A DNA stretch of 64,000 bases. Source: Flavobacterium sp. KACC 22761 (GTDB taxonomy: Bacteria; Bacteroidota; Bacteroidia; Flavobacteriales; Flavobacteriaceae). Every line of letters begins with the position of its first letter. Position 1 is the first letter of the stretch. The stretch is taken from the NCBI RefSeq assembly GCF_034058155.1, contig NZ_CP139148.1, positions 2,852,001-2,916,000 of the forward strand. Direction: 5' to 3'. Both the position numbers and the translations under genes were made by a program. Below, one piece after another: positions 20,233 through 38,240 of this stretch. Under the pieces are notes generated by a model that worked only from the letters and a program-made list of their open reading frames with translations, ran no database searches and had not been told where the DNA came from.

Positions 20233-21690
20233 ATGAAAATGAAAAAAATAGTAATAACATCAATTTTAGCACTAACAACTGTTTTGGTATCTGTTTCTTG
20301 TGATAATGCTGATTTTGGCGATACCAACTTAAACCCAAATTATCCTAGTGTCGCAAATACAGCTTCGTTGCTTACAGGAGCCGAAAGATCAATGTCGCCT
20401 ATTCTTACTGCAACTGAGCCACTTTGTTATGTACAATATATCACAAACGGACAATATCCTAAGGAAACGATTTATGATGTGGTAAATTTTGAATATACCA
20501 GCAATTATGTGTCTATACTAAACAACTTGCAAGCGGTTATAAATTTAAACAAAGATGCTGCAACGGCGGGAGCAGCATTAGCTAATGGTTCAAACAATAA
20601 CCAAATTGCAGTAGCAATGATCTTGAAAGCTTATGTCTTTCAGCATATCACAGATCGATGGGGAATGGTACCTTATACAGGAGCTTTGCAAGGGTTAAAT
20701 AATCCATTTCCTAAATTTGATACACAAGAAGCTATTTATGACGGATTGTTTAAAGATCTTACTGATGCAGTAGCACTTATGGATGCTGGTGCAGGACCAA
20801 AAGGCGATGTTATTTTTACCACAAAAGCGACTCAGATGTCTGAATGGAAACGTTTTGCAAATACTTTAAAGTTAAACATGGCGATGCGCTTATCAAAAAG
20901 ATTTCCAGCTGCTGGAGGTTATGCTGCAACAAAATTTGTTGAGGCTCTAAATGCTGGAACTATTGCCTCGAATTTACAAAACATTACATACCCTTATATT
21001 ACGGACGAGGCTTATGACAATCCTTGGGAAGATCGTTTTGAAACTAGAACAGACTATTTAGTGAGTGAACCTTTTGTAAATTTATTGATTGGTACAGGAA
21101 CAAATCTTGCACCACAAGATCCTAGACTGGCAAAATTTGCAGAAAAAGCAGCTAATGGCGGTGGAATTTACAAAGGTGGTCTTACTTCGGCTGTAGGAAA
21201 TACAACTGTTGCAAATTATTCTTTTATAACTAATACTATTATTAAAAATAAAACTGCTCCTGCATTTTTCTATACTTATGCACAAGTTTCTTTTGCTAAA
21301 GCTGAAGCTGCATCTTTAGGATGGATTCCGGGTTCAGCAGCAACTTTTTATGCTGAAGGTATTAGAGCTTCAATGGCGCAATGGGGCGTTACAACTGCGG
21401 CGGCCGATGCTTATGTTTTGCAATTTCCTTACGTAGATTTAAAATCTATTGCTTACCAAAAACACATTGCTTTGTATATGCAAGGTTATGAAGGATGGAA
21501 TGAGTGGAGAAGATTTGGAACTGATGCTGTTGCTCTAACTGTTCCTACTGGAGCGATTGGTTCTGCTACAATTCCGCAAAGGCAAGCTTATGGAGCGAGT
21601 GTAAAAACATTGAATTTAGAAAATTACAATGCCGCAATCGCTGCTCAAGGAGCTGACAAAATGGAAACAAAAGTGTGGTGGGCTAAATAA
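20233..21690 (+). CDS. SusD/RagB-type nutrient-binding lipoprotein (SusD-like_2 group)
   Basis: The product has 485 residues. A lipoprotein signal leads to Cys23 in VSVSCDNADFGDTNLNPN; acidic residues after the Cys fit surface export in Bacteroidota. The helical TPR-like scaffold and the segments HITDRWGMVPYTGA, WKRFANTLKLNMAMRLS and YEGWNEWRRFG are typical of the SusD-like_2 group. It works as the lid and ligand-binding partner of the SusC barrel encoded immediately upstream. ATG at 20233, two bases after the susC stop, indicates translational coupling. Confidence 0.93.
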   Translation: MKMKKIVITSILALTTVLVSVSCDNADFGDTNLNPNYPSVANTASLLTGAERSMSPILTATEPLCYVQYITNGQYPKETIYDVVNFEYTSNYVSILNNLQAVINLNKDAATAGAALANGSNNNQIAVAMILKAYVFQHITDRWGMVPYTGALQGLNNPFPKFDTQEAIYDGLFKDLTDAVALMDAGAGPKGDVIFTTKATQMSEWKRFANTLKLNMAMRLSKRFPAAGGYAATKFVEALNAGTIASNLQNITYPYITDEAYDNPWEDRFETRTDYLVSEPFVNLLIGTGTNLAPQDPRLAKFAEKAANGGGIYKGGLTSAVGNTTVANYSFITNTIIKNKTAPAFFYTYAQVSFAKAEAASLGWIPGSAATFYAEGIRASMAQWGVTTAAADAYVLQFPYVDLKSIAYQKHIALYMQGYEGWNEWRRFGTDAVALTVPTGAIGSATIPQRQAYGASVKTLNLENYNAAIAAQGADKMETKVWWAK

Positions 21691-21718
21691 TTTAGTCATA
21701 ATATTATTTAAACAAAAA

Positions 21719-21752
21719 AAAGGAAATCTCAATTTTGAGATTTCCTTTTTTG
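21719..21752 (+). terminator. Intrinsic terminator of the SusC/SusD operon
   Basis: AGGAAATCTCAA and TTGAGATTTCCT pair with a 2-base loop and a T run follows; the A run on the left would also serve the convergent gene at 21778. Confidence 0.85.
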
Positions 21753-21777
21753 CTTTTTATCTTGAAATAGTCATGAA

Positions 21778-22800
21778 TTAATGTGGATTTAAAACAGCAA
21801 TAATTTTATCTAAATCTTCTTTTAAATGATTTGCAGTAACAACAATTCGATTTAATGGTTCGGCTTCTTTGGTGTATTTGAAACTGGCAATAATAATGTT
21901 TTCGTCCTTTAGTTTTTCTACCAATTCATTTGATAAAAGATAAATCAAAGGATATTTTTTATCGAACTTAATGTTCTCATTCTGAATTAAAATCGAATCA
22001 ATATAACTTAAATTGTCCAGTAGTTTCTGATGCTGTGTTTTGTAAATTTCAGATGCATCAGAAATCGTTTGTACAAAAGCAGGATTCATTCCAGCAGCAC
22101 TTGTAAATGTTTCAAGTTCTTTTATTTCTCTAATGAATTGAGAATCGCTTGCGATAACACCGCCCGTTAGTCCGAATGCTTTTCCCAGAGACGAAACCAG
22201 AATTTTTCTTTTAATTGGTAATTGAATTTTGGAAAAAATTCCAGAACCGTTTTCATTTACAATTCCTAAAGAATGCGATTCGTCAAGAACTAATGTAATT
22301 TCTTTATGATTTGAAATTTCATTTATAAAAGACAAATCGGCTGGTTTTGTTTGAAACGACGGCACGCCATCAGTCAAGATCGTAATTTTTTCTGTTTTGG
22401 CATCTAATAAACGATCATTCAGTTTGTTATTAATAAATACAGGAAGGCTATTTTCAATTTGGATAGCAGAATGAATTTCATTTAAATGGAAAAAACAATC
22501 CGTTTCTTTTTTTAATTTTTCTAAAACCAATTTTCCCGCCAACATTCCCGAAGAAACGGTCAAAGCACTTTCTGAACCAATATGAGAAGCTAGAAACTTT
22601 TCGCCTGCATCATAAGCGCTAAGTTTTATATTTGCCGTTCTAGAACTTCCATAAGTTGTTCCCCAATTTAGGATATTCTGAATAACCAAATCCTGAAATT
22701 CTTTGTTTGTTGGAAGTCCTAAATAAGCAGTACCACCAAAATACAAATGCTGTTTTTGGTCAATTTCAATAACGCGATCAGGAAATTTTTCGACTATCAT
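21778..22800 (-). CDS. PLP-dependent aminotransferase, BioF/KBL-like (alpha-oxoamine synthase fold)
   Basis: The product has 340 residues, about 40 shorter than typical BioF. Family landmarks are YLGLPTNKEF at the start, GTTYGSSRTANIKLSAYDAGE, the substrate-side VLDESHSLG with the PLP-contacting Asp and His, and the Schiff-base lysine in SSLGKAFGLTGGV. It begins one base after the stop of the dipeptide epimerase gene on the same strand, so the two are translationally coupled. Biotin synthesis is possible by fold, but the partner suggests amino-acid or peptidoglycan-peptide metabolism instead; this is inference. Confidence 0.82.
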   Translation of the reverse strand: MIVEKFPDRVIEIDQKQHLYFGGTAYLGLPTNKEFQDLVIQNILNWGTTYGSSRTANIKLSAYDAGEKFLASHIGSESALTVSSGMLAGKLVLEKLKKETDCFFHLNEIHSAIQIENSLPVFINNKLNDRLLDAKTEKITILTDGVPSFQTKPADLSFINEISNHKEITLVLDESHSLGIVNENGSGIFSKIQLPIKRKILVSSLGKAFGLTGGVIASDSQFIREIKELETFTSAAGMNPAFVQTISDASEIYKTQHQKLLDNLSYIDSILIQNENIKFDKKYPLIYLLSNELVEKLKDENIIIASFKYTKEAEPLNRIVVTANHLKEDLDKIIAVLNPH

Positions 22801-22801
22801 T

Positions 22802-23812
22802 TTATAGCAATGTAACTCCGGTTCCGTTGAGATTCGAATAATTTACAATTCCATTTTTTATGGTTACACCGGTTGCAATATCTTCAGACAAAAGCAATGC
22901 GCCGTCCATGTCAACATAATCCAATTGTGGAAGCAAATGTGCTATGGCAGAAATTCCAACTGTCGATTCTGTCATACAACCTACCATGGTTCTTAAGCCT
23001 AGTTTTTTTGCTTCTTCGATCATGCGTTTTCCAGGAGTCAATCCGCCACATTTTACCAATTTTACGTTCACACCATGAAAATGATTGAAGCATTTCGCTA
23101 CATCTTCTTCAATTATACAGCTTTCGTCAGCAATTACAGGCAAGACAGAATGTTTAAAAACTTCTTTGTGTGCTTCCCAATTATCAGCTTTCATTGGCTG
23201 TTCAAGGAATTCTACACCAAGTTTTTTTAGTTCGACAGCGTTATTTATTGTTTCCTCAACGCCCCAGCCACAATTGGCATCAATTCTGAAAACCGCATCG
23301 GTATGTTTGCGAAGTTCTTTTACGATGGCAATATCTTCTTTGGTTCCCAATTTGATTTTATAAATTGGCCAAGGAAGTTCCTGCATTTTTGAAACCATTT
23401 TGTCAATAGAAGCAATTCCGATTGTATAATCCGTCATCGGATTTTTTTCTGTGGTATAATTCCACAATTCGTAGAGTTTTTTGCCTTTAATTCTAGCGTA
23501 CAAATCATTATAAGCCAAATCTAAAGCACATAAAGCAAACATATCGTCTTTTAAATACGGATGAATTTTTGCCCAAAAAGCATCAGGAGTTTCAATTTCC
23601 GAAGATTCAATGATTGTTCTGATTTCTTCTAAATCTTGCATCATCATTGGAACCGTTGTTTTGTAATACGGATTTGAAGTTGCTTCGCCAAAACCTGAAA
23701 AACCATTGCTTTGCAATTCAACGATAAGCGAAGGTTGAAAATCTATTGATTCTCTTGAAATTGTGAAAGTATGTTTTAGTTTTAAGTTATACTCTCTTAA
23801 AATTAGTTTCAT
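22802..23812 (-). CDS. Dipeptide epimerase (L-Ala-D/L-Glu epimerase type, enolase superfamily)
   Basis: The product has 336 residues. It has an N-terminal capping domain and a TIM barrel of the muconate-lactonising-enzyme subgroup. Catalytic lysines are seen in YKIKLGT and in VKLVKCGG. Metal ligands are in RIDANCGW (Asp), FLEQPM (Glu) and IADES (Asp). Members epimerise dipeptides such as L-Ala-D-Glu released during cell-wall recycling. Whether this one uses that substrate cannot be told by eye. It is directly followed by a PLP enzyme (21778), a likely pathway partner. Confidence 0.88.
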   Translation of the reverse strand: MKLILREYNLKLKHTFTISRESIDFQPSLIVELQSNGFSGFGEATSNPYYKTTVPMMMQDLEEIRTIIESSEIETPDAFWAKIHPYLKDDMFALCALDLAYNDLYARIKGKKLYELWNYTTEKNPMTDYTIGIASIDKMVSKMQELPWPIYKIKLGTKEDIAIVKELRKHTDAVFRIDANCGWGVEETINNAVELKKLGVEFLEQPMKADNWEAHKEVFKHSVLPVIADESCIIEEDVAKCFNHFHGVNVKLVKCGGLTPGKRMIEEAKKLGLRTMVGCMTESTVGISAIAHLLPQLDYVDMDGALLLSEDIATGVTIKNGIVNYSNLNGTGVTLL

Positions 23813-28710: not shown

Positions 28711-29661
28711 TTAGATTTTGAAGTTTTTCTGTTCGCTTTCATTTAAGAAACTCCAAGCCACAATACGGCTGTTTTTTTGGCCTTGAGCCATATCAATTGT
28801 TTTGATAGAAACGGCATTTACCTTTTTCAGAATTTTATAAATCGAAGAAAGATTTTCTTTTTTAGAAACCAAAGTTGTAAACCATAAACATTGCGAAGCG
28901 TATTTTGCGCTTTCGTAAATCATTTGTGTAATAAACCCGATTTCGCCACCATTGCACCACAATTCGGCGTTTTGACCGCCAAAGTTTAAAACGGGATTTG
29001 TATTTCTTTTTTCCTTCGGATTTAAATTAGAAACTTTTCTAGAAGCACTTTTGTTTGCTTCTTGTGCCGATGCATGAAAGGGAGGATTACACATGGTAAA
29101 AGTGAATTTATCTTCAGGAATAAAGATATTTTTGAAGATAAATCGGGATTCAGGTTGTTGTTGCAATGCAATAGCATCGATTAGTTTTGGATTGGCCTCG
29201 ATAATTTTACTGCAATTTTCAATCGCTTTTTGATCAATATCTGTTCCAACAAAACTCCAATCGTAAATACTATATCCTAATATCGGATAAATTAAATTTG
29301 CACCAGTTCCGATATCTAAACCTAAAACAGAATTTCCTTTCGGAATGATTCCGTTATTGTTTTCGGCTAATAAATCAGCGATATAATGAATGTAATCAGC
29401 GCGCCCGGGAATTGGCGGACAAAGATAATGTAAAGGAATATTCCAGTTTTGAATATTATAATAAGTTTGTAAAAGAGCCCTATTTAATGTTTTTACAGCT
29501 GCTGGATTACTGAAATCAATAGTTTCAATTCCGTATTTGTTTACAGAAATAAAAGCTTTTAATTCAGGACAATTTGAAATCAATTTATCAAAATCATAGC
29601 GATTGCGATGAAGATTTCTTGGATGTAAATTACTTTTTTCAGAATTGTCGTTTGCTTTCAT
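28711..29661 (-). CDS. rlmF: 23S rRNA (adenine1618-N6)-methyltransferase
   Basis: The enzyme methylates A1618 of 23S rRNA using S-adenosylmethionine. I use the ATG at 29659-29661 (316 residues) over an upstream TTG. The characteristic start LHPRNLHRNRYDF, the SAM-binding LDIGTGANLIYP and the catalytic NPPFHASAQEA match RlmF. Length fits the family. The truncated end of the cassette array lies about 60 bases upstream, so rlmF marks the outer conserved boundary of the accessory region. Confidence 0.93.
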   Translation of the reverse strand: MKANDNSEKSNLHPRNLHRNRYDFDKLISNCPELKAFISVNKYGIETIDFSNPAAVKTLNRALLQTYYNIQNWNIPLHYLCPPIPGRADYIHYIADLLAENNNGIIPKGNSVLGLDIGTGANLIYPILGYSIYDWSFVGTDIDQKAIENCSKIIEANPKLIDAIALQQQPESRFIFKNIFIPEDKFTFTMCNPPFHASAQEANKSASRKVSNLNPKEKRNTNPVLNFGGQNAELWCNGGEIGFITQMIYESAKYASQCLWFTTLVSKKENLSSIYKILKKVNAVSIKTIDMAQGQKNSRIVAWSFLNESEQKNFKI

Positions 29662-29719: not shown

Positions 29720-29769
29720 TTTTACATTAAGCTAATTGTCTAAATCCGATGTAGTAGCTGTTATGTGCT
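29720..29769 (-). repeat. Truncated attC-like site at the distal end of the array
   Basis: Only the right half of the repeat is present: ACATTAAGCTAATTGTCTAA then ATCCGATGTAGTAGCT and the core GTTATGTGCT. No matching left arm is found before 29720. It closes cassette 1 and probably marks the degraded end of the array. Confidence 0.75.
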
Positions 29770-29778
29770 GTTTTTTTA

Positions 29779-30816
29779 TTAGTCAATAGGTTTTGGCATA
29801 TCTTCATATGGATATTCATACCCATTGTCATCTTCCCATTCTTTTTTTATAATGTCGCCATAAATGACTTGACGAACTTCGTAATCTTTTGTATCCATTG
29901 TCCCAACGAAAATTCTTTGATGTTCTGGAACTTTCTCATATGCTTCTTTTAATTCGTCTCGTATTTTTTTTGTCGGATTTTGTTTGTATTCGTCAAATAT
30001 TCTCGCACATTTGGCAATACTATTTTCTCTACCGTTTAGCTCATTAAACTTGTCAGTTAACTCATTTAGTTTGAATTTAATGTCAACACCGCTTCCTGAG
30101 ACAATATTAAAAGATCCTAAATTCATAATTGTAATAGTTTCACCGATTTTCAAATCTGTTGTTAGTATCTCGTTTTTAGTTAGTTCATCTAATTCTTCAA
30201 ATTTGTAAATTTTCTTTTTTGGTAAATTAGTTATCTCAACGTTTCCATTCTTATAAATAGATAGTTCTGCTAAATAAGTTTTATTGTCATCATTTCTATA
30301 AAAAAAATGAAATTTCTCGCCATTAATCCTGTTAGGGAAGAAAGAGTTCGGGTCGTCAAAATGATAAGGTTTTGGTGTGGGCATAAAGTGTTTAGCAACA
30401 TTTACTTTACCTAACATTTTTAAATTATTTCCATTATAATTGTGCAAATTTTCAAGTGTAGGGTTGAGTTGTTTTACCAATGAATAAATATAATCAGATA
30501 GGGTTTCTTTGGTATGTTTCCATTCTCCTTGTTCTATATTCCAATGCCCCAAACCAAAAATAGAAATTGCTTCTCCGTCTGGAATTGAAGTGACAACCCA
30601 ACCTTTATTTAACTTGTCTTTGAACATTGATAAGTCAACCATTTCCCAACAAGAAATAAGTCCATCACTATACACTTGCAAGTCAGTAAAATGGTATTGC
30701 ATATTGTGTATTATTCCTGGAACAGAAAATCCTTCAAAAACTTCTGTTCTTGTTATAGTTGTCAATTCGGCTTTTTCGGTCTTGTTAGATTTGAATATTT
30801 TGTCAAACAGTTTCAT
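29779..30816 (-). CDS. Cassette 1: hypothetical protein
   Basis: From the ATG at 30814-30816 the product has 345 residues (a TTG nine bases upstream is less likely). There is no signal peptide. It contains two versions of a domain: WEMVDLSMFKDKLNKGWVVTS then IPDGEAISIFGLGHWNI, and later YKFEELDELTKNEILTTDLK then IGETITIMNLGSFNIV. It is therefore an internal duplication of a small beta-rich module. I do not recognise the family. It is bounded by GTTATGTGCT (29760-29769) and AGCACATAAC (30844-30853). Confidence 0.75.
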   Translation of the reverse strand: MKLFDKIFKSNKTEKAELTTITRTEVFEGFSVPGIIHNMQYHFTDLQVYSDGLISCWEMVDLSMFKDKLNKGWVVTSIPDGEAISIFGLGHWNIEQGEWKHTKETLSDYIYSLVKQLNPTLENLHNYNGNNLKMLGKVNVAKHFMPTPKPYHFDDPNSFFPNRINGEKFHFFYRNDDNKTYLAELSIYKNGNVEITNLPKKKIYKFEELDELTKNEILTTDLKIGETITIMNLGSFNIVSGSGVDIKFKLNELTDKFNELNGRENSIAKCARIFDEYKQNPTKKIRDELKEAYEKVPEHQRIFVGTMDTKDYEVRQVIYGDIIKKEWEDDNGYEYPYEDMPKPID

Positions 30817-30843
30817 TTGTTTCAAGATGTCGTTTTTTTTAAT

Positions 30844-30981
30844 AGCACATAACGTTCTGTCGCTTGGCGAGGTTGCGAAGTTCGGAACTGATTATTTTCT
30901 GGTAAAGAAAAAAAATCTTGCGAAACGCAAATGTGAACTTACCACAAAACTCGCAATTGCGTGAAAAGGCTGTTGTGCGTT
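30844..30981 (-). repeat. attC-like site 2 (divergent type)
   Basis: It has the same length and position as the other sites but a different body. TCGCTTGGCGAG (30860-30871) can pair imperfectly with CTCGCAATTGCG (30951-30962). It starts with AGCACATAAC and ends with GTTGTGCGTT. It shares cores and palindromic design with the others but not the CTACA...TTTGGG arms. Confidence 0.75.
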
Positions 30982-30990
30982 CGGTTTTTT

Positions 30991-31410
30991 TTATTCTTTC
31001 CAATATTCTTCCATAATTGGAATTCTGTTTATTACATTTTTAGATAATATTTCAAATTTATTTTCAATATTCAAATCTTTATTTTGGTCATACCTAAACC
31101 AACTTTCGGTACCATTTTCTTCTGACGTAGAATTTGGATATATTCTTTTTCTTTCAAATAAATCGTGTGCTGTCAATTTATTCAACGGAATCAATTTTCC
31201 CCAGTGCGTTTTAAATTCAGGTTCTTTCCAATTAGCTAATTCAATTATGAATCCGCCGCCATTTCGATCAAATTGAAAAGTCAACAAATTTGTCTTTCCA
31301 TTTTCCGTTTTTCTAAAATGTGGAAAACTGCCTTTAAAATTTCTGCTCCGTAATTCAGGAATAAAATTTTCATTAAGCGACTTAATCATTTTATCTTTTT
31401 CTAAACTCAT
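30991..31410 (-). CDS. Cassette 2: DUF4304-like protein
   Basis: I use the ATG at 31408-31410 (139 residues). A longer frame beginning with GTG at 31473 would start inside the attC-like site. The pattern IPELRSRNFKGSFPHFRK followed by LLTFQFDRNGGGFIIELANW matches the DUF4304 family, soluble proteins of unknown function found widely in accessory regions. The unit is bounded by GTTGTGCGT and ACGCACAAC. Confidence 0.75.
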   Translation of the reverse strand: MSLEKDKMIKSLNENFIPELRSRNFKGSFPHFRKTENGKTNLLTFQFDRNGGGFIIELANWKEPEFKTHWGKLIPLNKLTAHDLFERKRIYPNSTSEENGTESWFRYDQNKDLNIENKFEILSKNVINRIPIMEEYWKE

Positions 31411-31453
31411 GGTTCCAAATAATTTCTTGAATTCTATTTCGTTCCGCCAAACT

Positions 31454-31592
31454 GACGCACAACGTCTTGGCACTACAGCGGGTTTGGGACTAAATTAAGC
31501 CCATTCTTCGGATTTGAGAAATCATCACAAATACAAAACCAACTTTCCATTAAGGCAATTGCCCAAATCCGTTGTAGTGGCTGTTATGTGTC
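31454..31592 (-). repeat. attC-like site 3
   Basis: Arms ACTACAGCGGGTTTGGG (31472-31488) and CCCAAATCCGTTGTAGT (31562-31578) pair over 17 positions with two G-T wobbles on the plus strand. The outer cores are GACGCACAAC (left) and GTTATGTGTC (right). The central loop contains CAAATACAAAACCA. Confidence 0.9.
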
Positions 31593-31602
31593 GCTTTTCT
31601 TG

Positions 31603-32310
31603 TCATTTATAATAATAATACCAATTACTTTCGTAATTCTTGTCAAAGTTTTCTTTACTGTCAATAAAAACCTGAATATCATTCCTATTGAAGTAATTAA
31701 ACTCGTCAAATGGTTTTACAAACTCATAATACTTGTCAGCCCACATTTTTTTGATTTCAGATCTGTCATATTCTTTTACCTTTTCATCTGTGAACATAAA
31801 AAAGGTTGGAATGGTAAAGCCAATCGAGATTGTCCAAATATCTTTATTATGAAATGAATTAATGAACTTGTCTGTCTGTTCTTTTTTAATTTTATATGTC
31901 GCCTCAATTTTGGCAATAGGTTCAAATGCACCATAAACTACAAATACATTATCTGTCAAATAAATACCGTTGTTGTTTGAGTTTAATATTTTTGAAATTA
32001 AGTTATTGCTTTTGGAAAGCCCTTGTTGGTTGATTATTTCAGCAAACTTTTCTCCAATAGCTTTTTGTTTTGTTTTGTCAAAATATGAAATGCCTTGAGT
32101 TAAAAATTTACTCTTCTCTTTCTCAAACTCAAAACAAATCTGAATTCTTGGCGTCTTGTTGTCTAATGTGTCGTAGATAATGTTAATTGTTTTTACTTCA
32201 TAGGTTTTGTCTATCCACTCAGCAAGGGGCACAAATTCTGCTTTCATCTTTTCAGTCCCAAGGATAATTCGCTTTGTCTGTATATATTCTTTGTCAGATG
32301 GTAAAATCAT
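31603..32310 (-). CDS. Cassette 3: hypothetical protein
   Basis: The product has 235 residues with an ATG at 32308-32310. It is soluble, rich in Lys, Ile and aromatic residues, and has no signal or membrane segment apart from a hydrophobic stretch IWTISIGFTIPTFFMF near residue 160. I do not recognise the family. The unit is bounded by GTTATGTGTC and GACACATAAC. Confidence 0.72.
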   Translation of the reverse strand: MILPSDKEYIQTKRIILGTEKMKAEFVPLAEWIDKTYEVKTINIIYDTLDNKTPRIQICFEFEKEKSKFLTQGISYFDKTKQKAIGEKFAEIINQQGLSKSNNLISKILNSNNNGIYLTDNVFVVYGAFEPIAKIEATYKIKKEQTDKFINSFHNKDIWTISIGFTIPTFFMFTDEKVKEYDRSEIKKMWADKYYEFVKPFDEFNYFNRNDIQVFIDSKENFDKNYESNWYYYYK

Positions 32311-32332
32311 ATTGCAGTTGTTGTTCTAAAGT

Positions 32333-32470
32333 GACACATAACGTCCCCGCGCTACAAGCAGTTTGGGATTAAATTAAAACCATTCTTCGGATTTACCAAA
32401 TCATCCCAAATACAAAACCATTTTCCATTAAACTAATTGCCCAAATCCGTTGTAGTAGCTGTTGGGCATC
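32333..32470 (-). repeat. attC-like site 4
   Basis: Arms GCTACAAGCAGTTTGGG (32351-32367) and CCCAAATCCGTTGTAG (32440-32455) pair imperfectly. The outer cores are GACACATAAC and GTTGGGCATC. The loop holds CAAATACAAAACCA. The spacer between core and arm is 9 bases on the left and 5 on the right. Confidence 0.9.
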
Positions 32471-32471
32471 G

Positions 32472-33569
32472 TTATTTTATATACTCGTTTATTAGTTCAA
32501 TTTTTTGGTCAATATATTTCACAATTTCTGTTGGTTTCATTTCTGATTCTTTAAATCCAAAAATATTATTGTTACAACTTCCGCAATATTCTCCAATTTC
32601 AACTGATTTATTTCCGCATTCACAATTCCAAACATCTTTTTCTTTTGAAGACAAAAGTTGTTTTTTAGTTGTTATTTCTCCTCGTTCTTTAAAAGTAGAA
32701 TGAATAAAATTTTTGGTTTGATTGAAGTTTTCAATATCATTCTTGTCATAGAATGATTTGTCATAGGTTGCTATTCTTAAACCAATTTTTTGCTTTTTGA
32801 AATCTGAATTTCTAAGTAAACTCATATTTTTTTCATAATCAAATAGGTTTAATTCCTTGATTACTTTAGATAAATATAAAGCGACTTGCTGATTGGTTTC
32901 GGTTTCAATTTTATCGTAAAGTAAACTTACTCTTTGGGTTTCTTCCAAAGCATCTATATAACTTGTGAAATTTTTATGAAACACATTATAAGAATCTGGC
33001 ATTGATTGAAAGTTCTCAATTAAGTGGGTATACCTTTTTAATATGAATGGAAAAATTTCTTGAACCTGATTCGAAGTTATAAAACTCCAAATTTCATCAT
33101 CATAATCTAATTCTCCATTTTCAGCTCTTTCAATAATATTTTTTCTTTGTCTTAAATTGTTTATTCTTTCAACACCAACATTTTCAAACTTTTCATTTGT
33201 ATTTGATAATGAATTTAATTTTTCGTCTTTTTCAATAATTACTGCTGTTCCGATTGCAGTTAACATAAACATTGATTTTCCCTTTCCTGATATTTCATCC
33301 ATATCAATATTTAAACCTATAACACAATTTCCACCAATCTCGTGTGCGTTGTATTTTATTCTCTCTATTGCTTCATTATAAAGTGAGGATAATTGTTTTT
33401 GATATGAACTTGAACGACCTCCGAAGACATCTGTTAATCCTCCTAAAAAATCGCTAAATAAATTTGTACCTGCTACGATATGAGCTGAAACTGGTTTTAG
33501 ATGTTTTTTAATTTTTAAGCCATCTGCAGAAGAAGTTGTTATTACTAAAATGTCTTTAGGATTTGCCAT
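32472..33569 (-). CDS. Cassette 4: YbjQ-like domain protein with C-terminal zinc ribbon
   Basis: The product has 365 residues. Residues 5-112 match the YbjQ/UPF0145 fold: ITTSSADGLKIKKHLKPVSA, then ERIKYNAHEIGGNCVIGLNI and FMLTAIGTAVII. The middle (about 130-300) is helical and unrecognised. The C-terminus has a zinc-ribbon pattern with C316, C318, C329 and C332 (CECGN and CGSCN). YbjQ domains form ring oligomers of unknown function; the fusion with a zinc ribbon suggests a nucleic-acid or protein-binding role, which is inference. The stop lies two bases from the core at 32461-32470. Confidence 0.82.
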   Translation of the reverse strand: MANPKDILVITTSSADGLKIKKHLKPVSAHIVAGTNLFSDFLGGLTDVFGGRSSSYQKQLSSLYNEAIERIKYNAHEIGGNCVIGLNIDMDEISGKGKSMFMLTAIGTAVIIEKDEKLNSLSNTNEKFENVGVERINNLRQRKNIIERAENGELDYDDEIWSFITSNQVQEIFPFILKRYTHLIENFQSMPDSYNVFHKNFTSYIDALEETQRVSLLYDKIETETNQQVALYLSKVIKELNLFDYEKNMSLLRNSDFKKQKIGLRIATYDKSFYDKNDIENFNQTKNFIHSTFKERGEITTKKQLLSSKEKDVWNCECGNKSVEIGEYCGSCNNNIFGFKESEMKPTEIVKYIDQKIELINEYIK

Positions 33570-33613
33570 AGTTTTGTTTTTTTGTTTTCTTATTTAGTAC
33601 GATTGGTTATAAT

Positions 33614-33751
33614 GATGCCCAACGTCCCCGAGCTACAAGCAGTTTGGGATTAAATTAAAACCATTCTTCGGATTTGCCAAATCTTCCAAATACAAAACCA
33701 TATTTAAATTAAGCCAATTACCCAAATTGCTTGTAGCGTGTGTTGGCAGTA
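33614..33751 (-). repeat. attC-like site 5
   Basis: The best palindrome of the set. Arms GCTACAAGCAGTTTGGG (33632-33648) and CCCAAATTGCTTGTAGC (33721-33737) pair at 16 of 17 positions, with a single G-T wobble on the plus strand. The outer cores are GATGCCCAAC and GTTGGCAGTA. The loop holds CAAATACAAAACCA. Confidence 0.92.
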
Positions 33752-33770
33752 GGCTTTTTGTAGATTTCGT

Positions 33771-34862
33771 TTATACTTCTTCAATTTTAAATCCTTGCTT
33801 TTTAGCCAAATTAACAATATTATCAATATTGAATTTTCCCCATTCAGTAGAGACAACAAATTTTACATTATCACTACTTGTTAAAATGTTTTTATCATCA
33901 ATAAAGTGTCTTTTATTCGATTTATTAGCATATTTCGTTTCTACTAATTTAAGCTCATTAATCACACCTGTTGAGCCTTGATATTCATCAAGAAAAATAT
34001 TTTTAAGATTACTGAAACTTGAAGGATTTTCTTTTAAATAAGCTCGAACAAATTCCAACACAAATTTATTTTTTGCAAGTTTTATTCCTGATTCGTTTAT
34101 AATGTATTTTGTTTTATCCCTTGCACTTAGAGTTTCAGAATACTGTTCGTATTTAGTTGGTGGAGTTTTTATAATTTCTGAAACGATTGCGTTTTTTGTT
34201 GTAATTTTTAAAGCTAAACCTTGCAATACATTATCAATTATTTCGCCATCATATTCTTTTTGTAAATCCTGCTTTATTAATTCTAATATTTTTAATTCGT
34301 AATCTGGTGATATGATTTTATTCAACAATACTTTTTGTTCATTCTTTCTATTAATACTTTTAAGAATGTTTTTTGTAAAGTTATTTAATGCATCGTAATT
34401 AAAATTCTCTTTATTAAAAAGTTCCACAAACTTAATTCCTTTCTGACTATCTTTTTCGAAATCAATAGTTTCAAGCAAAATAGGGTCATCATATTCGGTT
34501 AAGTCTCCATCATAAAATATTTGTATCATTTGACCGATTAAAATTCCATATTGAAGTTTTAATTGACGCATGTAAGAAAATAACTGTTGTTGAAATTTAG
34601 TGTTTAGAGGAATACTTGGTTGTTTAATTTCAATTACAAATAAGTTTCTTTTTTCTACTGAATTTACAATAATGTCTGGGATGATTCTGTTTGATGCACC
34701 AATTGCAAATGAAGGACGAATTTGCAAATCTCCCGAATATTCTTTCCAATCCAAAACTCTTAAAGCTTGAATTACATTTAGTTCAAAGTCATTTTCGCTA
34801 ATTTCTGCTCTTATATTTTCGGAAAGCAAAAAGCATATCTCATTCCATTTTTCGTTATTCAT
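33771..34862 (-). CDS. Cassette 5: PD-(D/E)XK nuclease-like protein related to HsdR N-terminal domains
   Basis: The product has 363 residues. The N-terminal part has the PD-(D/E)XK pattern: Glu27 in ENDFELNVIQ, Pro62-Asp63 in RIIPDIIV and E78-I-K80 in FVIEIKQPS. The surrounding sequence resembles HsdR_N domains (RPSFAIGASNRIIPDI). No helicase motor is present. The C-terminal part (about 315-363, KNILTSSDNVKFVV then STEWGKFNIDNIVNLAKKQG) looks like a small separate module. An anti-phage or restriction-like role is plausible but not shown. Confidence 0.8.
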   Translation of the reverse strand: MNNEKWNEICFLLSENIRAEISENDFELNVIQALRVLDWKEYSGDLQIRPSFAIGASNRIIPDIIVNSVEKRNLFVIEIKQPSIPLNTKFQQQLFSYMRQLKLQYGILIGQMIQIFYDGDLTEYDDPILLETIDFEKDSQKGIKFVELFNKENFNYDALNNFTKNILKSINRKNEQKVLLNKIISPDYELKILELIKQDLQKEYDGEIIDNVLQGLALKITTKNAIVSEIIKTPPTKYEQYSETLSARDKTKYIINESGIKLAKNKFVLEFVRAYLKENPSSFSNLKNIFLDEYQGSTGVINELKLVETKYANKSNKRHFIDDKNILTSSDNVKFVVSTEWGKFNIDNIVNLAKKQGFKIEEV

Positions 34863-34882
34863 CTCTTCAGTTTTTTTAAGCT

Positions 34883-35020
34883 TACTACCAACGTTCTGGT
34901 ACTACAGCGGGTTTGGGACTAAATTAAGTCCATTCTTCGGATTTGCCAAATCATCCAAATACAAAACCAACTTTCCATTAAGCCAATTGCCCAAATCCGT
35001 TGTAGTAGCTGTTAGTGGCT
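34883..35020 (-). repeat. attC-like site 6
   Basis: Arms ACTACAGCGGGTTTGGG (34901-34917) and CCCAAATCCGTTGTAGT (34990-35006) are the same as in site 3. The outer cores are TACTACCAAC and GTTAGTGGCT. The stop codon of cassette 6 is read from the TTA inside the right core. Confidence 0.9.
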
Positions 35021-35668
35021 GGTTTTTCTGAGTTTGTTATTTAATATATGCTTAATTATTCCTGTTCCAATTAGATAAGGACCTTCATTAAATTCAAATT
35101 TCATTTTTTCTTTTAATTGTCCTGCAAAATATTCAACACCAAGAATTTTAATTTCAGCTTCTACAGTTTCACCAGGGAAAACGATATTTCTTTCAATAAA
35201 TTTCTGGTAGCCTGTAGTTTGCATTTCAGCAAAATCAAATTTTATACTTGGTTTATAGCCAGAATGTGCTGGAGTTTTTCTGCCTCCATCTTCAGTTTTT
35301 CTATAATTTAAAATTGCGATAAAGTCGGCATCACTACTTTCAATTTCCGCTTGGTTATTATGGAAATAATCATACGCATAACCTTCTATTTCGCCTCCTG
35401 CAATTTCATTATTCTCTTCATCCAATAGTTTATATGCGTGTTGTTCATGACCAATACTTGCTTCTCCATCTAAACCTAAAAGTATTGTATAAAAAGTGTC
35501 TGTTAGCAAAACAGAAATTAGATGTTTTAATTTTTCATTATTTTCTGCATCAAGATTTAGTTGATTTATTAATGATGAAACATAAGTCTCATTATTTCCG
35601 CTAAATGCAGAATTAATTGTCAACTTTCTTTCTAAATAAAACCCTTTTACAAATTCTTCTGATGTCAT
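35012..35668 (-). CDS. Cassette 6: protein with C-terminal EF-Tu domain-III-like module
   Basis: The product has 218 residues. The C-terminal part (about 130-210) reads RKTPAHSGYKPSIKF, then NIVFPGETVEAEI and NEGPYLIGTGII. This is the strand pattern of elongation factor Tu domain III (HTPF..YRPQF.., PGD.V.., REGG..GAG). There is no GTPase domain. The N-terminal part (about 45-110) has LLTDTFYTILLGLDGEASIG and GGEIEGYAYDYF and is unrecognised. A role as an EF-Tu mimic or a ligand of EF-Tu-directed toxins is a guess. Its TAA lies inside the recombination core. Confidence 0.75.
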   Translation of the reverse strand: MTSEEFVKGFYLERKLTINSAFSGNNETYVSSLINQLNLDAENNEKLKHLISVLLTDTFYTILLGLDGEASIGHEQHAYKLLDEENNEIAGGEIEGYAYDYFHNNQAEIESSDADFIAILNYRKTEDGGRKTPAHSGYKPSIKFDFAEMQTTGYQKFIERNIVFPGETVEAEIKILGVEYFAGQLKEKMKFEFNEGPYLIGTGIIKHILNNKLRKTSH

Positions 35669-35694
35669 TTCTTCTGCTTCTTTTATGGTAAACT

Positions 35695-35833
35695 AGCCAC
35701 TAACGTTTCCGCGCTACACGCAGGCTGGGATTAAAAATGCGTAATCTTTCGGTTAAAACCTAATTTTTCAAATACAAAACCATCTTTAAATTAAACCAAT
35801 TGCCCAGCTTGCTTGTAGCGTGTGTTGGCAGTA
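35695..35833 (-). repeat. attC-like site 7 (proximal to the recombinase)
   Basis: Arms GCTACACGCAGGCTGGG (35714-35730) and CCCAGCTTGCTTGTAGC (35803-35819) pair at 15 of 17 positions. The outer cores are AGCCACTAAC and GTTGGCAGTA. The loop holds CAAATACAAAACCA, although the sequence before it differs from sites 3-6. Confidence 0.9.
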
Positions 35834-35834
35834 G

Positions 35835-36308
35835 TTAATTTTCTCTTATTGCTTTAATTCCGCTGTATTTCTCCAATTTTGAAATAATTTCAGCGTCAAA
35901 TCTATTTTCAATTCTTTCTTTTTCATCAACACTAAAGTCTTCTTCTTTCAGCCACTTATTATGTCTTTTAGTGAAAATGGAACGAATGGCTAATATAGTT
36001 GGTCCATTTTCATCTTGTTTTTCATTTCCGTCCGTAACAAATGACACATAATACATTTCTTCAGGCTCTGATTGAAAATAAAAAATCCTCGTATCCAAAA
36101 AGTCATAACCTCTTTTTTTCCAATTATCATACTCTTTCCATTTCTCAGGAATTTCAAGTTCAGCATTTTTATTGAACAAAGTATCAATTGCTTTTTCAAT
36201 ATTCTTTTTGGGTGTCGCAAAATTTCTGCTATCAAAACCACCCAAAGTTCCGTCACAACTAATTAACAAATAACCGAATAAAAGAATAAAAAAGATTTTA
36301 ATTTTCAT
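35835..36308 (-). CDS. Cassette 7: hypothetical lipoprotein
   Basis: From the ATG at 36306-36308 (157 residues; an in-frame TTG at 36320 is less likely) the N-terminus is a lipoprotein signal ending in LLISCDGT, so the product is envelope-anchored. The mature part is charged and soluble with no known motif. It is the cassette closest to the recombinase, which in integrons is the most recently gained. Its TAA starts two bases from the core. Confidence 0.75.
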   Translation of the reverse strand: MKIKIFFILLFGYLLISCDGTLGGFDSRNFATPKKNIEKAIDTLFNKNAELEIPEKWKEYDNWKKRGYDFLDTRIFYFQSEPEEMYYVSFVTDGNEKQDENGPTILAIRSIFTKRHNKWLKEEDFSVDEKERIENRFDAEIISKLEKYSGIKAIREN

Positions 36309-36334
36309 ATATTTTCTCAATTCTGCGGGTTAAT

Positions 36335-36446
36335 TACTGCCAACTAGTATATATGTATGACAAAACCATACAAAGCCACTAAATTTTGGGTAGATATGTA
36401 TGATAAACGTCGTACTTTATTTTTAAATCAAATATATGATAATTCT
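36335..36446 (-). other. attI-like region between first cassette and recombinase gene
   Basis: TACTGCCAAC (36335-36344) is the outer arm of cassette 7. To its right there is no 138-bp palindrome, unlike all the other cassette junctions. Instead two direct repeats occur: ATATGTATGACAAAAC (36351-36366) and ATATGTATGATAAAC near 36393-36407. That is the layout expected for a primary attachment site with accessory recombinase-binding repeats. The role is inference. Confidence 0.55.
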
Positions 36447-37490
36447 TTATAATTCATCAAAGGGACTTTTAATTTGTTGAATGTTTTTAGTACTTACATG
36501 CGTATAAATTTCAGTAGTTTTGCTACTACTATGACCTAATAATTCTTGTATATAACGCAAATCAGTTCCGCTTTCTAATAAATGCGTGGCATAGCTGTGG
36601 CGCATCCAGTGAAGGGTTACTGGTTTTGTATTGCCAACTTTTTGAAGAGCTTGTTTCAAAACACTTTGTAAGCTTTGTTCTGAATACTTTTCTCCAGAAC
36701 TTTGACCTTCAAACAGCCAAATGCTCGGTTTGTATATCGTATAATATTCTCTAAGCATTTCTAATATTTTAGGGGATAAGGGCGAAATTCGGTCTTTTTT
36801 GCCTTTAGCTTGTTTAATAATAACAATTCCTCTCTTAGAATCAATATCAGCAGGTTTTAAATTTAGAAGTTCACTTCGGCGTAAGCCACAACTATAAATC
36901 AATGAAAGCATTGTTTTGTGTTTGATGTTAGAATGTGCATTCAAAATCAATTTTATTTCTTCTTTACTCAAAACGTTAGGTAAAATTTTTGACCTTTTGG
37001 GGCGATGAATTTTGTCAATTTCAATTTTAGTTCCGCATACTGTAGTGAAAAATAATTTCAAGGCATTGACGATTTGATTTTGATAAGAAGAAGAAAGGTT
37101 GTTTTTAAGAATATATTCGTTGTTGTAAATTAATACATCCTCATTGGTAATTTCGGAAATATTTTTTTCTCTATAAAATATCAAAAAAGATTTTAAAGCT
37201 TCGGAGTACGTTTTGATAGTGTTTGGACTGTATCTCTTAGAAGAAAGCCATTGAACGAATTTTTTTATTTGCTCAAAACCCTTCTCCGAAGGAAAAGAAT
37301 GAGAAAGAGGAATTAAATGAAATTTTACCCTGTTTTCAGTCGTGTCAGGGAGATGCCAAACGCCTAAAGTTTGACTCCAACGCGAACCTGCCAACTTTTT
37401 TATTCGAGTTATTAATGCAGCATTTTTTTCAAAATAAACTGCAATTCTTTTTTCTTTTTTATGGATGATAATTTTAGCTTCCCAATTCAT
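36447..37490 (-). CDS. Tyrosine recombinase of the cassette array
   Basis: From the ATG at 37488-37490 the product has 347 residues. A basic N-terminal segment (about 1-60) precedes a SAM-like core-binding domain (about 70-155). The catalytic set is complete: R204 in CGLRRSELL, K229 in AKGKKDR, H294 and R297 in HWMRHSYATHLL, H320 in LLGHSSS and Y329 in IYTHV. K229 and H294 are about 65 residues apart, so the roughly 30-residue insertion typical of IntI is absent. The C-terminus IKSPFDEL resembles IntI endings (SPLD). It is most like XerC/D-type integrases of Bacteroidota. The array on its 3' side makes it the likely cassette recombinase. Confidence 0.9.
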   Translation of the reverse strand: MNWEAKIIIHKKEKRIAVYFEKNAALITRIKKLAGSRWSQTLGVWHLPDTTENRVKFHLIPLSHSFPSEKGFEQIKKFVQWLSSKRYSPNTIKTYSEALKSFLIFYREKNISEITNEDVLIYNNEYILKNNLSSSYQNQIVNALKLFFTTVCGTKIEIDKIHRPKRSKILPNVLSKEEIKLILNAHSNIKHKTMLSLIYSCGLRRSELLNLKPADIDSKRGIVIIKQAKGKKDRISPLSPKILEMLREYYTIYKPSIWLFEGQSSGEKYSEQSLQSVLKQALQKVGNTKPVTLHWMRHSYATHLLESGTDLRYIQELLGHSSSKTTEIYTHVSTKNIQQIKSPFDEL

Positions 37491-37577: not shown

Positions 37578-38240
37578 TTAATCAAAACATTCCATCATTA
37601 AAAGATCGCCTTCGCGATGTGATATCATTACAAGTCCGTCCTGTTCAACAGAATTACTGCTCCCAGTTCTGTAGCCCATTGTAAGCGTATCGTTTTGCAA
37701 TTCGTATTTTAAATTCGTGGAATAAATACCATTTACGGTACCAATTGGAATCAGCGAAATTGGAGTTTGCGCTGTGTACCATTTCTCAAATTTTCGTGGC
37801 AAAAGAAATATTTTTGAATGATCATCGAGAATTACGATTTTAAGCGAATCACGATGACGAACAATATTCGTGAGGTTTGTAATGGTATGATCAGCACGTT
37901 TTCCTGTTGCCCAAACCACATTTACAGCTGGAATTCCTCGTTCAACAAGATAATCGCAAGCTTTTTCAAGATCAGTTTTGTCTTGATCTTCAGTATGAAC
38001 AATTTCAATAGGATATTGTGATGTTCTGTAAATTTCGGGATCAAACCCACGATCAAAATCGCCAAGAAGCACATCGACTTTTATGCCCAATTCAAGAACT
38101 CTTTCAATAGCAGAATCCAGAACAACAACCAATGGCGACCATTCCAGCAATTGTCCTAATAGTTCAGGACTGCAGGCAGCTCCATTGGCAATAATTAAAG
38201 CAGGTTCCTGATCGTCGCGAACTATATGATGTGATGACAT
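37578..38240 (-). CDS. Thiamine pyrophosphokinase
   Basis: The enzyme transfers pyrophosphate from ATP to thiamine. The product has 220 residues. Motifs are LLGDFDRGF (metal-binding Asp pair), DQDKTDLEKACDYL and VVWATGKRADHTITNL, the family signature G-x-R-x-D-H-x-x-x-N. The C-terminal beta domain (about 140-220) binds thiamine. It lies just upstream of the recombinase gene on the same strand (87-base gap), marking the conserved side of the accessory region. Confidence 0.92.
   Translation of the reverse strand: MSSHHIVRDDQEPALIIANGAACSPELLGQLLEWSPLVVVLDSAIERVLELGIKVDVLLGDFDRGFDPEIYRTSQYPIEIVHTEDQDKTDLEKACDYLVERGIPAVNVVWATGKRADHTITNLTNIVRHRDSLKIVILDDHSKIFLLPRKFEKWYTAQTPISLIPIGTVNGIYSTNLKYELQNDTLTMGYRTGSSNSVEQDGLVMISHREGDLLMMECFD

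What the first reader, a model, noticed from the sequence alone, without database searches (positions are those of the whole stretch)
29720..37490. Integron-like cassette array with its own tyrosine recombinase
Seven unrelated genes, all on one strand, alternate with palindromes of about 138 bp and end at a complete tyrosine recombinase gene. Seen directly: repeat positions at 29720, 30844, 31454, 32333, 33614, 34883 and 35695, one gene between each pair. Known: integrons are built this way with IntI and attC. Inferred: this is a functional cassette-capturing system of a Flavobacterium-type chromosome. Integrons are best known from Proteobacteria and a few other phyla, so an array with a different recombinase would be notable.
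Basis: partly seen in the sequence, partly recalled or inferred. Interest (0 to 1): 0.95.

Follow-up and report, generated by a model that had tools for sequence, protein, structure and literature searches.

The report
Flavobacterium integron with a non-standard recombinase
A Flavobacterium chromosome carries a row of seven gene cassettes beside a recombinase gene that lacks the part found in the known integron recombinases, and the same arrangement with different cassettes recurs in many related bacteria, so it is likely a widespread gene-capturing system that standard searches have missed.

Summary
In detail: six complete ~124-bp hairpin sites and one half site separate seven same-strand genes beside an intact tyrosine recombinase. 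By the sequence tests run here the array behaves like an integron. Each cassette's 5' end is complementary to its own R'' box, not to the site it sits in (106 of 122 adjacent cassettes perfect). An attI-like box follows the recombinase in 40 of 55 loci. Sites picked without any pairing criterion still form the stem. In 80 named loci, 138 of 141 sites lie downstream of the recombinase on its strand. One relative has the same slot and a 95%-identical recombinase but none of the seven cassettes; 15 others have thiN and rlmF adjacent with no recombinase between. Yet the recombinase is not IntI: it lacks the IntI-specific insertion, fails the IntI model and falls outside the IntI clade. Sites occur in 182 of 295 sampled Bacteroidia genomes, in a phylum where the IntegronFinder 2.0 paper reports few complete integrons. 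Verdict: a new, widespread variant of integron. Catalysis is inferred, not shown.

The parts
36447..37490 (-). tyrosine recombinase (347 aa): N-terminal bbabba extension (predicted), SAM-like domain, catalytic domain; no IntI-specific insertion
36335..36371 (-). attI-like site: short hairpin, TATATACTA, then R' box GTTGGCAGTA (36344-36335) complementary to the R'' box of cassette 1
35704..36343 (-). cassette 1: ORF 35835-36320 (lipoprotein-like by eye) plus site; no confident family
35699..35830 (-). attC-like site of cassette 1
   Evidence: R1 116 bits
34892..35703 (-). cassette 2: ORF 35012-35668, weak similarity to EF-Tu domain 3 (below cut-offs), plus site
34887..35017 (-). attC-like site of cassette 2
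   Evidence: R1 116.7 bits
33623..34891 (-). cassette 3: ORF 33771-34862, HSDR_N_2 domain and candidate defence family PDC-S57, plus site
33618..33748 (-). attC-like site of cassette 3
   Evidence: R1 114.1 bits
32342..33622 (-). cassette 4: ORF 32472-33569, YbjQ domain, plus site
32337..32467 (-). attC-like site of cassette 4; its two arms look like different site subfamilies (by eye)
   Evidence: R1 76.3 bits
31463..32341 (-). cassette 5: ORF 31603-32310, no family, plus site
31458..31589 (-). attC-like site of cassette 5
   Evidence: R1 107.9 bits
30853..31462 (-). cassette 6: ORF 30991-31473 (GTG start as listed; the true start is probably internal), DUF4304, plus site
30848..30978 (-). 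attC-like site of cassette 6; arms diverged
   Evidence: R1 71.4 bits
29720..30852 (-). cassette 7: ORF 29779-30825, DUF7638/DUF7639, ending in a half site (R''/L'' only, about 29720-29769)
28711..29658 (-). rlmF, chromosomal neighbour on one side of the slot
37578..38240 (-). thiN (thiamine pyrophosphokinase), chromosomal neighbour on the other side of the slot

Best explanation
This is an integron-type gene-capture platform: seven gene cassettes, six of them a gene plus a complete ~124-bp attC-like hairpin site, follow an attI-like site and an intact tyrosine recombinase that lacks the IntI-specific domain, and that recombinase likely inserts and removes the cassettes as circles by cutting between G and TT of the R' box. 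Shown by sequence: cassette boundaries, attI-like and attC-like sites, orientation, cassette turnover between genomes and the missing domain. Inferred: that the recombinase acts on the folded single (bottom) strand, as IntI does, that it needs no I2 helix, that cassettes are expressed from upstream of the array, and that the system is active today.
For: Boundary rule: 106 of 122 adjacent cassettes have 6/6 complementarity between the cassette start and their own R'' box (mean 5.79, same-site 2.73, 2000 shuffles mean 2.64, max 3.01); a second set, partly overlapping, gave 64 of 88. attI-like box: 40 of 55 loci, shuffled mean 1.2, max 6 in 5000 shuffles, 31 of the 40 at 95-107 bp after the recombinase. 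Stem: 101 sites picked without a pairing criterion in loci not used for the model average 13.7 Watson-Crick pairs of 20, arms shuffled 7.9, max 8.7. Position: 138 of 141 sites downstream on the recombinase strand, 14.7% expected. Turnover: same slot, no shared cassette in G109; slot without recombinase in 15 relatives. Duplicated or shared cassettes end close to the predicted cuts, including a 1435-bp cassette 97% identical between two families. Canonical IntI over cut-off in 0 of 61 Flavobacterium genomes. Bottom strand folds better in 172 of 277 sites (top in 99), flanks the reverse. Sites and recombinase associate across 295 genomes, odds ratio 8.6.
Against: No experiment. In the class survey 55 genomes have sites but no recombinase match and 24 the reverse, so coupling is not absolute (relic sites, draft contigs and cut-offs could do this). 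Of 80 named recombinase loci only 40 show a site; 18 of the 80 have under 500 bp downstream, but 6 with 2 kb or more have none. 15 of 55 loci lack the attI-like box. The IntI-specific domain, reported as necessary for capture and as conferring single-strand recombination (PMC7790495, passage), is absent. The genomes are related, so the Fisher p is nominal. In one search two of five covariation measures (number of pairs or pair types) do not exceed shuffles, and its sites had been picked partly by stem complementarity. The window's two weakest sites have poorly matched arms and the last is half a site.
Confidence: 0.88

Rival explanations
1. A canonical integron remnant (cluster of attC sites) moved by an ordinary IntI elsewhere; the adjacent recombinase is a bystander.
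For: Sites resemble attC in plan; sites without a nearby recombinase exist.
Against: Canonical IntI over cut-off in 0 of 61 Flavobacterium genomes and 1 of 49 Bacteroidia genomes in the phylum draw; the attI-like box follows this recombinase at a nearly fixed distance; R1 finds no site in 18-19 kb around three canonical IntI genes; in other classes R1-positive genomes are not richer in IntI (16 of 52 against 40 of 97, counted).
Confidence: 0.05
2. Housekeeping XerC/XerD recombine the sites, as with dif-like modules, and the array recombinase is something else.
For: The genome has an XerD (L002) and the array recombinase is Xer-like.
Against: Sites are ~124-bp hairpins with covarying stems, not short dif sites; the array recombinase tracks with sites across 295 genomes and its 3' flank holds the attI-like box.
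Confidence: 0.04
3. The repeats are dispersed palindromes (REP or MITE type) that happen to lie between genes.
For: A few copies lie elsewhere in the genome.
Against: 138 of 141 on the recombinase strand and downstream of it; own-end complementarity of cassettes; longest ORF on the array strand in 167 of 184 cassettes.
Confidence: 0.01
4. The platform was an integron but is now inactive in this strain; what we see is relic order.
For: Last site is half, two sites degraded, some relatives carry interrupted recombinase genes.
Against: Recombinase ORF intact here and in most of the strong matches listed; recent turnover in relatives: duplicated cassettes 98.5-99% identical and a cassette 97% identical between families.
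Confidence: 0.12

Closest known systems
Canonical (IntI/attI/attC) integrons, sedentary chromosomal type
   Same: Recombinase gene beside an insertion site, one-gene cassettes each ending in a folded site with R and L boxes, G^TT boundary, own-end complementarity, bottom-strand folding bias, cassette turnover (plan of classical integrons partly recalled)
   Different: No IntI-specific (I2) insertion, N-terminal extension instead, outside the IntI clade; recombinase on the same strand as the cassettes; R' is GTTR but rarely GTTRRRY (14 of 289 sites); a nearly invariant A.C position in the stem where classical attC has bulged bases (bulges recalled)
Archaeal integrons (PMC9668308)
   Same: Cassette arrays with attI and attC outside Proteobacteria
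   Different: Those IntIs keep the IntI-specific domain, per the passage read
XerA / XerC-D recombinases (NF040815)
   Same: Catalytic and SAM-like domains; best solved relatives are XerA structures
   Different: N-terminal extension and an array of hairpin sites rather than a dif site
CALIN (attC clusters without integrase)
   Same: Single sites or small clusters outside the array exist in this genome
   Different: Here the recombinase and attI-like site are present

Membership tests
Integron | Tyrosine recombinase gene at one end of the cassette array | tested here: met
   Window; 138 of 141 sites downstream of it on its strand in 80 loci, 40 of which hold sites
Integron | Recombinase is IntI with the IntI-specific additional (I2) domain | tested here: not met
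   TIGR02249 204 bits, cut-off 265, match split; IntI1 508.6 bits; 43-column IntI1 insert absent
Integron | attI insertion site between recombinase and first cassette | tested here: met
   40 of 55 loci, shuffled max 6; by sequence only
Integron | attC: variable sequence, conserved hairpin, strand asymmetry | tested here: met
Integron | Canonical attC R' consensus GTTRRRY (consensus recalled) | tested here: not met
   14 of 289 sites; GTTR 286 of 289
Integron | Cassette is gene plus site, cut at G^TT, ends complementary when circular | tested here: met
   106 of 122 perfect
Integron | Cassettes usually promoterless | not tested
   Median 37 bases from cassette start to ORF leaves little room; promoters were not examined
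Integron | Cassette content differs between strains at one locus | tested here: met
   None of the 7 cassette genes found in G109's array in the same slot; one such pair compared
Integron | Recombinase-catalysed cassette insertion and excision | not testable with these tools
   needs an assay
CALIN | attC cluster without an adjacent integrase | tested here: not met
   intact recombinase at 36447-37490, though not one that counts as IntI
REP/MITE palindromes | Dispersed, without fixed relation to a recombinase gene and strand | tested here: not met
XerC/D dif-type modules | Short (about 28 bp, recalled) XerC/XerD binding sites | tested here: not met
   median site 124 bp with a 20-pair stem; no search for dif sites was made

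The most novel reading that the evidence does not exclude
A second lineage of integrons, spread through the class Bacteroidia and beyond, works on folded single-stranded sites without the I2 helix held to be what made integrons possible: either the living form of the pre-I2 ancestor or an independent invention of cassette capture.
Probability: 0.6. Interest if true: 0.93.

Novelty: new variant of a known kind. Interest (0 to 1): 0.88.

Why it matters
Reviews list Bacteroidota among integron-bearing phyla (PMC8618304, passage), but complete integrons are reported as rare there: IntegronFinder 2.0 names one in Salinibacter ruber and, earlier, only integrases without cassettes (PMC9024848, passages; its attC-cluster counts for Bacteroidetes were not seen). 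Here attC-like sites occur in 182 of 295 sampled Bacteroidia genomes and 104 of 121 Flavobacterium genomes, so a large reservoir of mobile genes would have been overlooked. Current thinking holds that integrons arose when a Xer-like recombinase gained the I2 helix (PMC7790495). A working platform without it would make that origin story directly testable and would give a new recombinase for cassette engineering.

Tried and rejected
Rfam on the window at E up to 10 and on seven relatives at gathering thresholds: no family covers the sites. Housekeeping Xer, REP/MITE and CALIN readings: see rivals. Loss of the IntI domain inside the IntI clade: the tree puts ten IntI rows in one clade (100/100) with 30 of 31 window-type rows in another (97/92); the row B_L117 falls nearer IntI and the IS91-associated recombinases, but is a long branch, and its gene lies on the strand opposite its array. 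The tree's root is unsure and the Xer rows have long branches. A first detector required ACGTT and stem complementarity; it also picked chance hairpins and 119-bp TTTTTTCACAG palindromes, which were left out with hits outside 110-130 bp and two single hits; 44 of the 55 kept were aligned as A1 and used for R1. Because of that selection the covariation is partly built in, so one search repeated the stem test on sites picked without pairing. A stem display script was off by one base and is not used; one search stopped on an error and was redone. PADLOC found one candidate defence match among seven cassettes. Single-site fold z-scores alone would not have been convincing. Ten literature searches in the held library listed no report of this system; Cury et al. 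2016 is not held, and most subscription papers and preprints are outside the library, so prior description cannot be excluded.

Rows dropped: one search kept 166 of 201 R1 matches (both boxes found), one search used 277 distinct of 295, one search kept 289 distinct of 357. In one search three of the 80 loci (L167, L176, L185) are genomes already in the first set (L045, L051, L044), so the second boundary set is not fully independent; they were left out but are in the 184 cassettes. One search also left out loci without a usable downstream site and the distant loci L115, L117 and L124, of which one (L124) has the box near the gene. R1 was built from 44 sites that recur, but the flanks compared there beyond AAC and GTT were not paired in the model. 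Genome surveys score a capped number of candidates per genome, so site counts per genome are lower bounds.
Full report
WHAT IS THERE. The window lies in a complete 5.04-Mb chromosome. On the minus strand the order is thiN, a 347-aa tyrosine recombinase (36447-37490), an attI-like site, seven gene cassettes, then rlmF. Six complete sites and one half site follow the seven genes. Cassette products are mostly of unknown function; families found are DUF7638/7639, DUF4304, a YbjQ domain and an HSDR_N_2 nuclease-like protein that also matches the candidate defence family PDC-S57.

CASSETTE BOUNDARIES. On the gene strand a typical site reads YAACA - stem - large loop - stem - (A/C)CGTTR. In the array, the box after the cut (GTTNNNNNN) generally does not match the R'' box of the same site, but is complementary to the R'' box at the far end of the cassette it begins. 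For the five window cassettes between full sites the scores are 6, 5, 6, 6, 6 of 6. Over 42 sources, 201 model matches gave 166 sites with both boxes and 122 adjacent cassettes: 106 score 6/6, mean 5.79, against 2.73 within a site and 2.64 for shuffled pairs (maximum of 2000 shuffles 3.01). In 80 further loci, three of them from genomes already seen, 64 of 88 score 6/6, mean 5.31, shuffled maximum 2.97. This is what circular cassettes joined at G^TT leave behind, and it is the boundary rule of classical integrons (recalled).

THE ATTI-LIKE SITE. After the recombinase stop codon comes a short hairpin whose sequence varies, then TATATAC(T/A)A or similar, then a GTT box. In 40 of 55 loci a box within 160 bp is 6/6 complementary to the first detected site's own R'' box, against a shuffled mean of 1.2 and a maximum of 6 in 5000 shuffles; 31 of the 40 lie 95-107 bp after the gene (examples). 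In the window the box is 36344-36335.

THE SITES. In 44 aligned sites, 87.6% of stem cells pair (shuffled 60.7%), 260 cells are changed on both sides (shuffled 80) and the covariation score is 0.644 (shuffled 0.169), each with 0 of 500 shuffles as high; the number of pairs changed on both sides (17) and of pair types (44) does not exceed shuffles (118 and 75 of 500 as high). Sliding the partner by one to three columns drops pairing to 29-37%. These sites had been picked partly by stem complementarity, so the test was repeated: in 77 loci not used for the model, 101 sites picked only by YAACA and (A/C)CGTTR at the right distance downstream of the recombinase average 13.7 Watson-Crick pairs of 20, against 7.9 with arms shuffled (maximum 8.7); the same pattern upstream or on the other strand gave 26 picks, none above 13 pairs. 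About a quarter of the 101 have under 10 pairs and are probably chance picks. One position, A22 with C117, is never a standard pair on the gene strand and is a T.G wobble on the other strand in 43 of 44; by fixed offset it is A with C in 218 of 277. The bottom strand folds better in 172 sites, the top in 99, equal in 6 of 277; flanking DNA of the same length shows the reverse, 96 against 174 of 274. The median length from AAC to GTT is 124 bp, and R' is GTTR in 286 of 289 but GTTRRRY in 14. No Rfam family matches.

THE RECOMBINASE IS NOT IntI. It passes the broad NF040815 model (223.7, cut-off 220), which the genome's own XerD also passes (230.5), so that model's name proves nothing. On the integron-integrase model TIGR02249 it scores 204 against a cut-off of 265, in two stretches, whereas IntI1 scores 508.6 in one piece. 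IntI1 has a 43-column insert where the window protein and three relatives run straight through, and phmmer against IntI4 (2a3v) likewise skips chain residues 186-242. The predicted model (pLDDT 83.5, pTM 0.52, so domain placement is unsure) shows no helix there and an extra N-terminal domain; XerA and IntI4 are its nearest solved folds. In a tree of 47 rows the ten IntI form one clade (100/100), apart from 30 of 31 window-type rows (97/92); the root is unsure.

WHERE IT OCCURS. Sites: 104 of 121 Flavobacterium genomes (E up to 0.01), 182 of 295 Bacteroidia genomes in 107 of 155 genera (E up to 0.001), 90 of 198 across the phylum. The recombinase at E up to 1e-45: 151 of the same 295; both 127, sites only 55, recombinase only 24, neither 89 (odds ratio 8.6, nominal p 2e-16 because genomes are related). 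Canonical IntI over cut-off: 0 of 61 Flavobacterium; 57 of 198 across the phylum, one of them among the 49 Bacteroidia of that draw. In the other classes (149 genomes) R1 sites occur in 52 and IntI in 56, both in 16, so the two are not associated there but some of those R1 matches could still be canonical attC. Of three 18-19 kb stretches around canonical IntI none holds an R1 match, whereas three of five stretches around R1 sites from other classes hold a window-type recombinase, one 69% identical. Named recombinase carriers include F. saccharophilum, F. psychrophilum, Kaistella, Pedobacter, Hufsiella, Galbibacter, Algoriphagus, Cyclobacterium and Paenimyroides; downstream sites were seen in F. 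saccharophilum, F. psychrophilum, Pedobacter, Algoriphagus, Cyclobacterium and Paenimyroides. A Chryseobacterium plasmid carries the recombinase (68%) with five same-strand sites after it.

TURNOVER. thiN and rlmF are adjacent (19-694 bp apart) without recombinase or array in 14 of 27 relatives' loci and in G119; in the other 13 loci thiN was not found beside rlmF. At least five of the 15 (G003, G005, G007, G019, G119) carry the recombinase elsewhere. G109 has the recombinase (95%) and 18 sites in the same thiN-rlmF slot but no match to any of the seven cassette genes. 184 cassettes have a median length of 798 bp, with the longest ORF on the array strand in 167 and a median 90% of the body filled (a few cassettes are counted twice from the same genome). 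F. saccharophilum and G109 each carry a duplicated cassette (99.0% and 98.5%), and two genomes of different families share a 1435-bp cassette at 97% identity. The matches stop 1-3 bases from one predicted cut and 23-25 bases from the other, the latter inside a similar neighbouring site.

LITERATURE. IntegronFinder 2.0 (PMC9024848, passages) reports, for Bacteroidetes, integrase-only elements earlier and now one complete integron, in Salinibacter. The archaeal integron paper (PMC9668308, passages) and Nemergut 2008 (PMC2426708, passages) use the additional domain to recognise IntI, so this recombinase would be passed over. Smyshlyaev 2021 (PMC8138268, passages) notes that the insertion is not fully conserved in its integron-like subgroup but calls it essential for integron function. 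PMC7790495 (abstract and passages) holds that gaining I2 created integrons.

JUDGEMENT. It works like an integron; as a member of the family defined by IntI it fails one defining feature. I therefore call it a new variant, not a categorically new system. What remains is the biochemistry.

Noticed in passing
L054:19240-20510 and 21690-23575 (Chryseobacterium plasmid NZ_CP041688): An IS110-family transposase gene and a group II intron (Rfam hits) both sit just inside the R'' box of attC-like sites, which resume on the far side (read by eye). Classical integrons have attC-targeting IS1111-type elements and group IIC introns (recalled), so other mobile elements may treat these sites as attC.
   Followed up: partly
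G000:C1:3175224-3176964, 81369, 736268, 2513598: Six further matches outside the array in the same genome: a cluster of three and three single ones, two of the six marginal at E about 0.04. Relics or secondary insertions.
   Followed up: no
window 30848-30978 and 32337-32467: The two lowest-scoring window sites have arms that look like different site subfamilies, as if sites recombine internally or decay.
   Followed up: no
L114:9494-10928 and L117:2263-3697: The cassette shared between two families encodes, by inspection of the ORFs, a MerT/MerP-like transporter and an ArsR-type regulator.
   Followed up: partly
L035:16537-17577 and L036:2142-2260: 119-124-bp palindromes with CAGNCTGTGAAAAAA arms, beside AACGT/ACGTT, lie near arrays of G112; possibly a small inserted element.
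   Followed up: no
window 37270-37490: The recombinase's N-terminal ~60-70 residues (predicted bbabba) match no Pfam family; a candidate DNA-binding arm.
   Followed up: partly
L173 and L192: Metagenome bins labelled Ignavibacteria and Azoarcus carry close relatives of the recombinase (69% and 67%); transfer or wrong binning.
   Followed up: no
G312:C1:110000-147630: An array of about 19 sites runs up to the recombinase gene in one Flavobacterium genome.
   Followed up: partly
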